Assembly: GCF_021287045.1 (NCBI RefSeq)
Contig: NZ_JAJTBG010000015.1
Location: forward strand, 1-64,000
Source of the DNA: Oryzomicrobium sp.
Lineage (GTDB): Bacteria; Pseudomonadota; Gammaproteobacteria; Burkholderiales; Rhodocyclaceae
Direction: 5' to 3'
Length of the DNA: 64,000 nucleotides
Each line of letters begins with the position of its first letter. Within the stretch, counting starts at the first letter, position 1. The notes beneath the pieces are model-generated. The model made no database searches, was not told the DNA's origin, and saw only the letters and a program-made list of their open reading frames with translations. The translations under genes were made by a program, and so were the position numbers. Shown here one piece after another: positions 21,479-24,740 of the stretch.

Positions 21479-22024
21479 TTTGGTACTCCTTCTTTTGTCA
21501 TGGGACTGACTTGGGTGATAAATCCTCCCCCGTTTCCGGGGCGGCAATTCGAGACGGAGCGAGACAGAAAAAACCTTGGCGGCTCTGCGTCAGGATTCCC
21601 CTGCCTCCAGGGGATTGCCTAGGCAATATTTCGGCCTGAAAGAAAATAACTGGAGTTACCGTTTTGCAAATGGCTGTAATCAAATGTTAAGGAAATCGGG
21701 TGGAGTCGTCCCTGTTTGTAGATCGTTGTTTTTCCATTGATTATATTGGCATTTTGTATCAATTTTGATACCGTTTCGGCGCTTCTGCGTGGCAATATTT
21801 TCCTTGTTTTGTTTTTGTGTAGATCGCTGTTTATTTTTGATTTTTACAAATACAAAAGGATATTGCCGCAGGTGGCGGCAATATCTGCCGCGCTGTTTTT
21901 ACGCTGTAAAAATAAATGCACCAATACGGTGCGAATTCATTTACCGGCGGGTCGGTTTTTTTGTATCATCGCCGGGTTTTTCAATTTTGACTTTAATCTG
22001 ACTTCTATTTGATTGCATCCGATC
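21479..22024. other. AT-rich, hairpin-rich intergenic island
   Basis: This ~540-base gap is strikingly AT-rich from about 21640 on. It contains a perfect palindrome GTATCAA-TT-TTGATAC (21756-21771) and an 11-bp hairpin GATATTGCCGC/GCGGCAATATC (21859-21869 with 21875-21885). TTTTTAC/GTAAAAA (21896-21912) and GCACC/GGTGC (21918-21932) follow. There is also a 14-nt direct repeat GTAGATCG(T/C)TGTTT at 21718 and 21819, and a T7 run at 21955-21961. It could hold a small RNA or the thioesterase leader. No protein gene is convincing. Confidence 0.55.
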
Positions 22025-22453
22025 ATGGCGCGCATCGAAATCACCCTTCCCGAGCACTACCTCTTTTCCACCGAGCTGCCCCTCTACATCGGCCACATCA
22101 ACTACGGCGGCCACCTGGACAACGGCCTGCTGCTCACCCTGGTGTCCGAGGCCCGGGTGCGCTTCTACAAGCACCTGGGCTATTCCGAGCTGGACGTGGA
22201 AGGCGTGGGCACCGTGGTGGCCGACGCGGCGGTGCAGTACAAGTCCGAGGCGTTCCATGGCGAGACCATGGTGGTGGAGATGGGCGCCACCGATGCGCAC
22301 AAGTACGGCTTCGACTTGGTGTGGCGCATGAGCGACCGGGCCAGCGGCCGGGAAGTGGCCCGGGGCAAGACCGGGGTGATCTTCTTCGATTACGGCCCGC
22401 GCAAGATCGCGCACATGCCGGAGGCGTTCCGCGCCAGGCTGGGGCTGGCGTAA
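22025..22453 (+). CDS. Thioesterase family protein (4HBT/hotdog fold)
   Basis: 142 residues. The segment LYIGHINYGGHLDNGLLLTLVSEARVRFYKHLGY has the 4-hydroxybenzoyl-CoA thioesterase-like layout, although the position of the usual catalytic Asp (normally in a D-x-x-G-H-V context) reads YIGHINYGGH, so catalysis may differ. A hydrolase for acyl-CoA or aryl-CoA thioesters is the likely role. I chose the ATG at 22025; a TTG at 22013 is also in frame, and neither has a clear ribosome site. Preceded by the AT-rich island, convergent with the cytochrome pair. Confidence 0.8.
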   Translation: MARIEITLPEHYLFSTELPLYIGHINYGGHLDNGLLLTLVSEARVRFYKHLGYSELDVEGVGTVVADAAVQYKSEAFHGETMVVEMGATDAHKYGFDLVWRMSDRASGREVARGKTGVIFFDYGPRKIAHMPEAFRARLGLA

Positions 22454-22542: not shown

Positions 22543-23181
22543 CTAGTCGGGGAAGGCTTGCAGGTAGGCGGCCACCGCCCGCATGTCGGCGCCGCTCAGG
22601 CCGTGGGCGATGGTCTTCATGACGCTGCCCTCGGGGCGCTCGTCGGTGCGTTGGAACACCACCAGTTGCTTGTAGAGGTAGTCGGCGTGCTGGTAGGCCA
22701 GGCGCGGGAAGGTGGCGTTGCCTTCGCCGTGCTCGCCGTGGCAGGTGGCGCAGGCCGGGATGTTGCCGTCCGGCAGGCCGTCCTTGAAGATGCGCCGGCC
22801 CGCCTCGGCCAGGGCCGGGGCCGCCGGACCGGGCGAGCGGGGGCGCTGGGCGGCGAAATAGTCGGCCAGCCCGGCGATCTGGGCGTCGGTGAGCTTGCGG
22901 CTCAGGCCCCACATGTATTCGAAACCGGCCGGATCGAGGCGATTGTGGCCGCGGAACTGGCGCAACTGGGCTTCCAGGTAATCCTTTTGCTGGCCGGCCA
23001 GGCTGGGGAAGTTGGGCGAGGGGGCGTTGCCGTCCAGCCCGTGGCAGTTGGAGCAGACCTGGGCCGCCAGGGTGGCGGCCGGGACGTCCGGATTCCCCAG
23101 ATCGCGGGAGCGTTCGAGATTGACGCAGCCCCCCGCAGCCAGCAGGAGGGCGGCGGTGGCGAGGGCGGGACGGGCGTTCAT
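22543..23181 (-). CDS. Diheme c-type cytochrome (c4-like), probable lipoprotein
   Basis: 212 residues. The N-terminus MNARPALATAALLLAAGGC fits a lipoprotein signal (Cys about 19). Two heme-binding motifs follow, CSNCH (43-47) and CATCH (144-148), each in a class I cytochrome c domain with nearby Met residues that could be axial ligands. Two-domain diheme cytochromes of this type carry electrons in the periplasm between donors and terminal oxidases or reductases. The gene lies 89 nt downstream of the Cyc2-like porin-cytochrome on the same strand, so the pair is probably co-transcribed and could be successive carriers in one electron path. Confidence 0.9.
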   Translation of the reverse strand: MNARPALATAALLLAAGGCVNLERSRDLGNPDVPAATLAAQVCSNCHGLDGNAPSPNFPSLAGQQKDYLEAQLRQFRGHNRLDPAGFEYMWGLSRKLTDAQIAGLADYFAAQRPRSPGPAAPALAEAGRRIFKDGLPDGNIPACATCHGEHGEGNATFPRLAYQHADYLYKQLVVFQRTDERPEGSVMKTIAHGLSGADMRAVAAYLQAFPD

Positions 23182-23270
23182 GGCGGGGCTCCTGGCGTCT
23201 GGGGGTTTTATCCGGCGTGGGGGCCGGCGGGTAATGAGGCTGGAGGCTGCGTGTCTGCGGGTCGGTGCGC

Positions 23271-24740
23271 TCAGTAGGCCGCCCAGAGGTAGAGGAAGGT
23301 CAGGTCGTTGTCCTTGGCGCTGCGGCTGGAAACGCCGTCGTAGGCGGTGCTGCCGCCCATGAACTGGGTGTACTTGTAGTACTGGAAGCCGATGCGCACG
23401 TACTGGATGGGGGTCCAGAAGACCTCGGGAATCCACACCCGGGTGCCGGGCCGGTTGTTGGCCGAGCCGGTGATCGGGTTGGCGGCGTAAAGGATGGCGT
23501 CCTTCGACCCCTGGGAGCTCACGTAGGACAGGCTGGCGCCGTACTTGGCCAGGTAGATGTAGGTGGCGTTGAGCTTGAGCAGGTCGATGGTGTTCGACGA
23601 GTTGGCGTAGCTCCCGGTGTAGGCCGGGTTGTTGGGGTTCCACAGGGCGTCGTCGTAGCGCTGCCGCTCCCGGGTGTAGGAGAACTGGGCCGAAAAGGTG
23701 TGGGGGTCCAGGATGTGCTGGAACTGGCCGTCGATGCCCACGTCGTCGTTGCGGATCAGGGGCGAGCTGGCGTTGGTCGGGTCGGAATAGACCCGGGCGT
23801 TCAGGCCGTGCAGCCCGATCATGGCGCTATTGGCGCCCCAGTCGTGGTTCAGGGCCAGCCGCCAGTAGGGGTTGTAACCCTTGAGGGTGGTGGTGTTGTC
23901 GCTGCTCACCCCCTGGCTCATGATCGAGTAGATGCCGTTGGCGTTGCGGTAGAGGCCCACCTCGGCGTACACCGTGTTGTTCCAGAAGGCATAGGCGTTG
24001 AGGCCGGCGTTCAGGTTGCCCTGGGTCAGCATCGGCGAGTACTGGGGGCCGGTGAACACGTTGGCCTGCAAGGAGGCGGGGCCGATGGGGGAGGGCACCA
24101 TCTGGAACGGGTTGTTGAAGGTGTTCCACACGTCGGTGGTGCCGATGTTGTTGTTCAGGCTGACGCCGACGATCAGGTCGCGCCCCGGGTTGATGAGGCG
24201 GTCGGCGTAGCGCAGGTCGAACTGGTCGGAGGCGGTGTGGCTGACCCATTTGCCCTGGCCGTTCTGCTGGGAATAGGGGTCGAGGGTCCACTGGGCGAAC
24301 AGGCCCAGGTTGTCGGTGATCTTGCCGCCGGCGAAGAGGCTGGCCTGGGAAACCGTGAACAGGCCGTCCCGGGGGTAGTTGTCGTTCGGCATGGCGCCGT
24401 TGCCGCCGCTGCCGTTGGGGTCGACCAGGGAGCCGTTGGTCTTGTTGGCCACCTTGGTCATGCCCGCCTGGATCATCACCGACAACGGGATCGGATTGCG
24501 CACCCCGATGGTGTAGCCGGTGAGCTTGAAGATGCGGCCATAGGGGGTGAGGGCGGGAAACTGGCCGCCGGCATGGCAGGCCACGCAGTTCTGCCCGGTC
24601 TGGCGGGCGAACAGGGGAAGCGCCTGGGCTTCGCCGGAAAAAAGGCTGGCCGCGGCGATGAGCCAGGCGGCGAGATGGAAGAAAAACCGGGGCGTGCCCG
24701 GACGTACCCATGAATATGCCGATGCCGTGCCGCGTTCCAT
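23271..24740 (-). CDS. Cyc2-like outer-membrane monoheme cytochrome-porin fusion
   Basis: 489 residues. A signal peptide ends ...SGEAQA (about residue 40). The mature N-terminus is LPLFARQTGQNCVACHAGGQFPALTPYGRIFKLTGYT-like, with one heme motif C52-V-A-C-H56. The remaining ~420 residues alternate polar and aromatic residues, typical of a beta-barrel, and end with an aromatic (WAAY). The PxFARQTGxxCxxCH...FPxLTxxGRxFKLxGY pattern and single-heme-plus-porin architecture are those of Cyc2, the outer-membrane Fe(II) oxidase of iron-oxidising bacteria. Whether this copy oxidises iron is inference; Cyc2-like proteins also occur in bacteria not known to do so. ATG 24740 has GGGAGA upstream. Confidence 0.8.
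   Translation of the reverse strand: MERGTASAYSWVRPGTPRFFFHLAAWLIAAASLFSGEAQALPLFARQTGQNCVACHAGGQFPALTPYGRIFKLTGYTIGVRNPIPLSVMIQAGMTKVANKTNGSLVDPNGSGGNGAMPNDNYPRDGLFTVSQASLFAGGKITDNLGLFAQWTLDPYSQQNGQGKWVSHTASDQFDLRYADRLINPGRDLIVGVSLNNNIGTTDVWNTFNNPFQMVPSPIGPASLQANVFTGPQYSPMLTQGNLNAGLNAYAFWNNTVYAEVGLYRNANGIYSIMSQGVSSDNTTTLKGYNPYWRLALNHDWGANSAMIGLHGLNARVYSDPTNASSPLIRNDDVGIDGQFQHILDPHTFSAQFSYTRERQRYDDALWNPNNPAYTGSYANSSNTIDLLKLNATYIYLAKYGASLSYVSSQGSKDAILYAANPITGSANNRPGTRVWIPEVFWTPIQYVRIGFQYYKYTQFMGGSTAYDGVSSRSAKDNDLTFLYLWAAY

What the first reader, a model, noticed from the sequence alone, without database searches (positions are those of the whole stretch)
22543..24740. Cyc2-like cytochrome-porin fusion with an adjacent diheme cytochrome
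The 489-residue protein has a signal peptide, one CxxCH at 52-56 inside the Cyc2-type string FARQTG..C..CH...FP.LTP.GR.FKL.GY, and a beta-barrel-like remainder. A diheme c cytochrome gene lies 89 nt downstream on the same strand. Cyc2 is the outer-membrane Fe(II) oxidase of iron oxidisers. Together they form a candidate two-step path from the cell surface into the periplasm. This would suit a Rhodocyclaceae member with anaerobic Fe(II) oxidation, but iron oxidation here is inference.
Basis: partly seen in the sequence, partly recalled or inferred. Interest (0 to 1): 0.8.

Follow-up and report, generated by a model that had tools for sequence, protein, structure and literature searches.

The report
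Iron-oxidase-type surface cytochrome with tethered partner
A bacterium of the Rhodocyclaceae group carries a two-gene electron inlet of the kind that acid-mine iron bacteria use to take electrons from dissolved iron, and its second protein appears to be fixed to a membrane by a lipid anchor, a detail I did not find described.

Summary
The 489-aa protein (23271-24740, -) is a Cyc2-type cytochrome-porin: it has the published Cyc2 signature and groups, in a maximum-likelihood tree, with rus-operon ('Cluster 2') Cyc2, apart from sequences that I infer to be Clusters 1 and 3. The dihaem partner (22543-23181, -) is a cytochrome c4.

The pair is widely conserved in Betaproteobacteria: 76 of the 80 closest named relatives have a haem gene just downstream. 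Among 199 family genomes this c4 type was found in 15, each time beside the porin. The same pair stands in the iron oxidisers Ferrovum JA12, P3G and PN-J185.

New to me: the partner looks like a lipoprotein (lipobox-type Cys plus SR linker in 71 of 76 named partners), unlike Acidiferrobacter-type Cyc1. Two Ferrovum papers speak of soluble acceptors.

Iron oxidation here stays inference. Many hosts are heterotrophs, the genome shows no RuBisCO and no rusticyanin, and 'anaerobic' was not tested. Best reading: an auxiliary Fe(II) inlet, Fe(II) -> porin haem -> tethered c4 -> respiratory chain.

The parts
23271..24740 (-). Cyc2-type monohaem cytochrome-porin gene, 489 aa
24624..24740 (-). signal peptide (residues 1-39, ends EAQ)
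   Evidence: read from the sequence and alignment A1; no predictor run
24510..24623 (-). N-terminal haem domain, residues 40-77 (ALPLFARQTGQNCVACHAGGQFPALTPYGRIFKLTGYT), Cyc2 signature
24573..24587 (-). haem-binding CVACH, residues 52-56
23274..23309 (-). last strand, NDLTFLYLWAAY, with the C-terminal aromatic residue typical of outer-membrane barrels
23182..23270 (-). 89-nt gap between the two genes
22543..23181 (-). dihaem cytochrome c4, predicted lipoprotein, 212 aa
23098..23127 (-). predicted lipid-anchor Cys19 and conserved linker (CVNLERSRDL, residues 19-28)
23041..23055 (-). c4 haem 1, CSNCH residues 43-47
22738..22752 (-). c4 haem 2, CATCH residues 144-148

Best explanation
The two genes encode a Cluster-2-type Cyc2 electron inlet. 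The first protein is an outer-membrane barrel whose N-terminal single-haem domain accepts electrons from a dissolved reductant, most likely Fe(II). The second is a dihaem cytochrome c4 tethered by a lipid to a membrane (by the +2 rule of E. coli, recalled, the inner face of the outer membrane). It takes the electrons as first periplasmic acceptor and hands them on to the respiratory chain, most simply to the cbb3 oxidase that this genome encodes. In an organism without RuBisCO it would be an auxiliary or mixotrophic route. Shown here: family membership, gene pairing, co-occurrence, conserved lipobox-type Cys, the pair in Ferrovum, genes for a cbb3 oxidase. Inferred: barrel fold, Fe(II) as donor, direction of flow, lipidation itself, outer rather than inner membrane, delivery to cbb3.
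For: Match to AXPXFAR[Q/K][T/Y] plus CXXCH (definition from passages of PMC8406198; match). Tree of 65 rows (thinned from 96): window inside a 52-row group with rus-operon Cyc2, separated 99/99 from the sequences inferred as Clusters 1 and 3, and inside a 22-row clade (98/84), 21 of whose 22 loci have the haem gene downstream (96-row quick tree). Partner's best PDB match is 1h1o, E 6e-38, which names as Cyc41 of A. ferrooxidans, encoded directly after cyc2. Haem gene within 700 nt downstream in 76 of 80 named loci. In 199 family genomes a c4 of 327 bits or more was found in 15, each on the same contig beside the window-type porin; the next c4 scores 220 (11 of the 15 were in the profile, 4 were not; at most 15 candidates a genome were scored). 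Same pair in Ferrovum JA12 (contig 962,267 bp here, 962,266 published), P3G and PN-J185. Sulfuriferula isolates that grow on Fe(II) have cyc1 and Cluster 2 cyc2. CcoO and CcoP in the genome.
Against: Only 29% identity to the rus-operon Cyc2 and 36-38% to Ferrovum's. Named hosts of close relatives include Burkholderia, Paraburkholderia, Collimonas, Undibacterium, Duganella and Polaromonas, to my knowledge not iron oxidisers. No RuBisCO and no rusticyanin match in this genome, and no oxidase among the neighbours scanned. Authors decline to call a distant Cluster 2 Cyc2 an iron oxidase without context. Thiobacillus denitrificans, which oxidises Fe(II), is reported to lack Cyc2, and a 2,909,809-bp genome that I take from memory to be its type strain lacks this porin, so the pair is not needed for Fe(II) oxidation there.
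Confidence: 0.58

Rival explanations
1. Same inlet, different main donor: in these Betaproteobacteria the pair takes electrons from something other than bulk Fe(II), such as complexed Fe(II), reduced humics, other metals or a cathode, as a side source of electrons or as detoxification.
For: Broad spread in heterotrophs; cyc2 of 'Ca. Tenderia electrophaga' is more expressed at the higher electrode potential; long branches to rus-operon Cyc2.
Against: Ferrovum, described as an Fe(II) oxidiser, carries the same pair with a lipobox-type Cys.
Confidence: 0.25
2. The pair runs outward: quinol-derived electrons pass via c4 and the porin haem to an external acceptor.
For: The c4 also matches PdsA, a periplasmic dihaem shuttle, weakly (E 9e-12, 45 bits against a cut-off of 330); a sister porin clade has a monohaem cytochrome and, in some loci, a NapC-type tetrahaem gene instead.
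Against: Neighbours of the window pair that were scanned hold no quinol-linked cytochrome; neighbours in the rest of the clade were not all named, so this was not excluded there. The partner resembles high-potential c4 of Fe(II) oxidisers.
Confidence: 0.1
3. An ordinary porin family with an incidental CxxCH and an unrelated c4 neighbour.
For: No Pfam, NCBIfam, PHROGs or PDB profile match names the porin (the weak DddQ matches lie outside the haem domain and look like chance).
Against: Invariant haem domain in 27 aligned members, published Cyc2 signature, strict pairing.
Confidence: 0.02

Closest known systems
Ferrovum Cyc2-like protein with downstream c4 (CytC-18 in strain PN-J47-F6)
   Same: Same gene order; porin 36-38% identical to the window in three strains, c4 41-47% in two; c4 with a lipobox-type Cys and an SR-containing linker in JA12, P3G and PN-J185. 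CytC-18 potentials +276 and +416 mV are published.
   Different: Acidophilic autotrophs; Ferrovum porins lie outside the window's 22-row clade; two papers write of soluble acceptors. The sequence of CytC-18 itself was not seen here.
Acidithiobacillus/Acidiferrobacter Cyc2-Cyc1 (rus operon)
   Same: Cyc2 followed by c4; window porin aligns over its length with the Acidiferrobacter-type Cyc2, 29% identity.
   Different: There cox and rus genes stand with the pair. Acidiferrobacter-type Cyc1 has an ordinary signal, no lipobox. A. ferrooxidans Cyc1 is reported as predicted to have a transmembrane helix, another way of tethering. In the window no such genes stand beside the pair.
Sulfuriferula cyc1 + Cluster 2 cyc2 (PMC12285272)
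   Same: Betaproteobacteria (recalled as near Sulfuricella), growth on Fe(II) reported, both genes present (passages).
Cluster 1 Cyc2 (Mariprofundus PV-1, Gallionellaceae)
   Same: Same haem-domain signature.
   Different: The window protein aligns with two inferred members over only 40 and 121 residues and lies across a 99/99 branch; 1 of 31 inferred rows (L192; some loci counted twice, one with 77 nt of flank) has a haem gene within 700 nt downstream.

Membership tests
Cyc2 cytochrome-porin | AXPXFAR[Q/K][T/Y] upstream of CXXCH | tested here: met
   ALPLFARQT at 40-48, CVACH at 52-56, five residues between FAR and the first Cys; definition from passages of PMC8406198
Cyc2 cytochrome-porin | single haem motif, PXL a few residues on, length at least 365 aa | tested here: met
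   one CxxCH, PAL five residues after it (published: four), 489 aa
Cyc2 cytochrome-porin | placement in a Cyc2 tree | tested here: met
   groups with rus-operon Cyc2, 99/99 from the other two groups.
Cyc2 cytochrome-porin | curated FeGenie Cyc2 HMM score | not testable with these tools
   HMMs not held
Cyc2 cytochrome-porin | outer-membrane beta-barrel | tested here: inconclusive
   C-terminal aromatic in 180 of 210 family rows; amphipathicity z only 1.16; structure prediction switched off
Cyc2 cytochrome-porin | Fe(II) oxidation | not testable with these tools
   needs biochemistry
cytochrome c4 | two cytochrome c domains, c4 family | tested here: met
   PF00034 in two stretches; 1h1o E 6e-38, 1etp E 4e-33
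Cyc1 of the rus operon | same branch as 1h1o | tested here: not met
   1h1o joins Acidiferrobacter-type Cyc1 (100/100); the window c4 is in a separate 18-row partner clade with modest support 90/90
lipoprotein | conserved lipobox ending in Cys | tested here: met
   recalled PS51257-like pattern met in 70 of 76 named partners, Cys plus SR linker in 71 of 76; Cys invariant in 22 of 22 partners that I chose for alignment A3. No predictor run; lipidation itself not shown
MtoAB/PioAB/MtrAB conduit | MtrB/PioB-type barrel in the genome | tested here: inconclusive
   no match in own genome, but no control genome rang either

The most novel reading that the evidence does not exclude
A distinct class of Cyc2 system, spread through heterotrophic and lithotrophic Betaproteobacteria and including Ferrovum, in which the first electron acceptor is not a soluble shuttle but a lipid-tethered c4 held under the barrel by a linker of about 24 residues with a conserved SR. 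It would make a fixed two-protein outer-membrane wire, and would mean that supplementary Fe(II) oxidation is far commoner in ordinary soil and freshwater Burkholderiales than thought.
Probability: 0.33. Interest if true: 0.63.

Novelty: new variant of a known kind. Interest (0 to 1): 0.48.

Why it matters
How electrons leave Cyc2 and cross the periplasm is, as far as I know, unsettled outside Acidithiobacillus. A lipid-tethered c4 that was found only beside this porin gives a concrete, cheap test: which membrane holds it, and does it become reduced with Fe(II) and the porin. The same module in Ferrovum and in a host without RuBisCO would separate Fe(II) oxidation from autotrophy, and porin plus lipo-c4 would be a more specific marker than a Cluster 2 Cyc2 hit alone.

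Tried and rejected
Family libraries and a PDB profile search give no name to the porin; weak DddQ matches (E 0.006) were set aside as chance. Cluster 1 membership was considered and rejected by the tree. A rus-type operon in the window was looked for and not found. A multihaem conduit was looked for without a working control. I hoped Thiobacillus would link the pair to genetics of Fe(II) or U(IV) oxidation; the orthology of the cytochromes mutated was not tested, and the genome taken as the type strain lacks the porin. Amphipathicity as proof of a barrel: weak (a first script timed out). Azospira as host was a guess from memory: one literature search did not settle it and the genus holds only two species here, so I leave the genus unnamed. 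A third gene, YceI, was found in 21 of 121 stretches searched, some of them one locus fetched twice, and not in the window.

Rows dropped before counts. The careful tree used 65 of 96 rows; 31 were dropped for time, gaps or long branches. The haem pattern left out L120, L124, L127, L220 and L231, Cyc2-like porins with a variant signature (FAMQT, FAVQT, FAAQT, FAEQT, RPQT), a frame of under 300 aa (L203) and fragments (L160, L163-L165, L169); none was in the tree. L231 is followed by a dihaem gene whose start shows no lipobox. In one search, 4 of 80 named loci had no downstream haem gene: L064 has only 102 nt of flank; L032, L067 and L084 have ample flank and are real misses. Of the 76 partners 72 are dihaem in one frame; L031, L040 and L083 are split or cut, and L089 was read in a wrong frame. 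Searches scored at most 4 candidates a genome, so their tallies are lower bounds.

On checking I added the reported transmembrane prediction for A. ferrooxidans Cyc1, which makes a membrane-held acceptor less unprecedented; for that I lowered the interest of the novel case from 0.66 to 0.63.

Full report
What is there. The window holds two genes on the minus strand: a 489-aa protein at 23271-24740 and, 89 nt further on, a 212-aa dihaem protein at 22543-23181. The larger protein has a signal-peptide-like start, ALPLFARQT at residues 40-48, one CVACH at 52-56, no other cysteine, and an aromatic C-terminus, FLYLWAAY. The genome (3.9 Mb, 26 contigs, 98.66% complete) has one copy of this porin. The only other species held of its genus has it too, 86% identical (2 of 2 with the window's genome), among the same genes, though a thioesterase gene that lies on the c4 side of the pair in the window lies on the porin side there. 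Ten neighbouring ORFs and the thioesterase were scanned with Pfam: regulators, hydrolases, an aminotransferase, DoxX, a muconolactone isomerase, a fatty-acid transporter and one ORF without a match; no oxidase, cupredoxin or other cytochrome.

Family. No Pfam, NCBIfam or PHROGs family claims the porin, nor does a profile search of the PDB. Passages of PMC8406198 give the Cyc2 signature AXPXFAR[Q/K][T/Y] upstream of CXXCH, with PXL after it, and a length of at least 365 aa; the window protein meets these, with PAL one residue later than published. In an alignment of 27 relatives A40, P42, R46, Q47, T48, G49, C52, C55 and H56 are invariant.

Placement. Relatives came from the family (37 of 199 genomes match), phylum (64 of 397), order (96 of 399), a rusticyanin-bearing family f245 (15 of 18) and 80 named loci. 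Family f245 was identified by its operon: cup-coxB-coxA-ctaB-rus-ctaG in G783 (by eye from the ORFs; COX1, UbiA and CtaG confirmed by Pfam in a relative), the order that passages of PMC10654088 give for Acidiferrobacter. Its Cyc1 groups with the A. ferrooxidans c4 of PDB 1h1o (69% identity, 100/100). G783 itself shows no porin match; most of its relatives do. Families f11, f274 and f47 carry the short-range matches expected of Gallionellaceae and Zetaproteobacteria; three f47 genomes were seen to carry also a second, FARKYG-type copy. This fits the published Clusters 1 and 3 (passages of PMC7029218), but these names are my inference. In the careful tree of 65 rows the window lies with the rus-operon Cyc2 in a 52-row group, cut off at 99/99 from the other two; within it, in a 22-row betaproteobacterial clade (98/84) and a 7-row subclade (100/100) with Sulfuricella (L033), two copies from an Oxalobacteraceae MAG, a Rhodocyclaceae MAG and L044. 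L044's contig accession begins CAIVHB01, the GTDB placeholder for which PMC13390463 proposes 'Ca. Solisferrum', a Ferrovaceae genus with cyc2 and photosynthesis genes (passages).

The partner. The dihaem protein is a cytochrome c4: PF00034 in two stretches, best PDB match 1h1o, E 6e-38, ahead of 1etp, E 4e-33. Passages of PMC10879576 state that Cyc41 (1h1o) is encoded directly downstream of cyc2 in A. [quoted passage not shown] Among the 80 closest named loci, 76 have a haem gene within 700 nt downstream, 72 of them dihaem in one frame. A profile of 22 partner c4s run over the same 199 family genomes gives a clean gap: 15 genomes at 327-354 bits, then 220 (G002, whose adjacent c4 lacks the lipobox), then at most 197. 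All 15 have this c4 beside a window-type porin on the same contig (in G006 the porin is cut by contig ends). Eleven of the 15 were in the profile, four were not; the informative part is that in none of the other 184 was such a c4 found without the porin, with at most 15 candidates scored in each.

A lipid anchor. Of 76 named partners, 70 meet a lipobox pattern that I recalled (PS51257-like) and 71 have Cys plus the SR linker. Of the five without, L050, L051 and L083 show Cys and RSR that my pattern was too strict for, L090 has the Cys without RSR, and L089 was read in a wrong frame. In 22 partners chosen for alignment the Cys (19 in the window), S25 and R26 are invariant, mostly as ERSR. The residue after the Cys is never Asp in the 71, which by a recalled rule for E. 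coli points to the outer membrane. Acidiferrobacter-type Cyc1, the dihaem partners of some deeper branches (L010, L018, L115, L126, L221, L229) and three c4-like paralogues of this genome lack the lipobox and the linker. Ferrovum JA12 (contig 962,267 bp here, 962,266 published), P3G (2.7 Mb, about 650 contigs; published 2,702,191 bp, 647) and PN-J185 (1.9 Mb, 6 contigs; published 1,889,241 bp, 6) show the same pair with a lipobox-type Cys (JA12: ASCSDLGSNPMHSAERSR; P3G: GACSTGITKSR). Passages of PMC4725956 and PMC4886054 speak of soluble c-type cytochromes as acceptors; PMC4725956 also reports a predicted transmembrane helix in A. ferrooxidans Cyc1, so a membrane-held acceptor as such has a precedent. 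I found no paper on a lipid-anchored partner of Cyc2 in searches of an open-licence library (listings, with passages read); subscription papers were not searched.

How it most likely works. Fe(II), or another dissolved reductant, gives an electron to the haem at the barrel; the c4 on its tether (24 residues from lipid Cys to first haem Cys) takes it and passes it on. The genome encodes a cbb3 oxidase (CcoO 309 bits and CcoP 327 bits, both over cut-off), so oxygen is a possible end point. A tether of this length held in the outer membrane is unlikely to span the periplasm, so a further carrier would be needed; if instead the c4 sits in the inner membrane, the porin needs one. Which holds is open and testable.

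Limits. No RuBisCO was found (5 of 14 control genomes rang), no rusticyanin match in this genome, no oxidase beside the pair. PMC10734462 declines to call a distant Cluster 2 Cyc2 an iron oxidase without context (passage). Against that, Sulfuriferula isolates with cyc1 and Cluster 2 cyc2 grow on Fe(II) (passages of PMC12285272). Two papers state that T. denitrificans lacks Cyc2 (passages); a closed genome of 2,909,809 bp in that genus, which I take from memory to be its type strain, lacks the porin, while 15 of 56 genomes of the genus match and 8 have a close full-length copy, at 347 bits or more. Anaerobic use was not tested.

Verdict. The finding is real, and the Cyc2 reading is right at family level. 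It is a new member of a known pairing (Cyc2 plus c4); what lifts it to a variant is the conserved, apparently lipid-anchored c4, found only beside this porin in the genomes searched. Function in iron oxidation is likely but unproven.

Noticed in passing
L020-L027, L029, L114, L116, L234, L235: A related clade of Cyc2-type porins (CAACHVGAYGPQLTPYG) has, in 12 of these 13 loci, a monohaem cytochrome downstream and no c4 (L022 shows no haem gene); a four-haem or cut multihaem gene lies nearby in L020, L025 and L029, of which L025 and L029 match NapC/NirT below the cut-off. Perhaps a quinol-linked version of Cyc2.
   Followed up: partly
L033:8121-8696, L057:5335-5919, L035:8036-8686 and others: A YceI-family protein gene (PF04264 for L033) was found in 21 of 121 stretches searched, after the c4 in those looked at; absent from the window.
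   Followed up: partly
L014:1057-2256: A Rhodocyclaceae genome (G031) keeps a shortened porin with its middle part missing or altered and no haem gene downstream: probably a decaying copy.
   Followed up: no
L044 (contig CAIVHB010000026.1): A Ferrovaceae MAG of the genus proposed as 'Ca. Solisferrum' (putative phototroph, PMC13390463) carries a window-type pair; whether it also has a Ferrovum-type copy was not checked.
   Followed up: partly
G203, G219, G333 (f47): Genomes that look like Zetaproteobacteria carry both a FARQTG-type and a FARKYG-type porin, matching the published two-cluster pattern.
   Followed up: no
L120, L124, L127, L220, L231: Cyc2-like porins in which the Arg of FARQT is replaced or the signature is altered (FAMQT, FAVQT, FAAQT, FAEQT, RPQT) while CxxCH stays; they would escape the published motif.
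   Followed up: no
window 22013-22453; L243:9033-9611: A thioesterase gene flanks the pair on opposite sides in the two species of the genus, so the pair or the thioesterase has moved locally.
   Followed up: no
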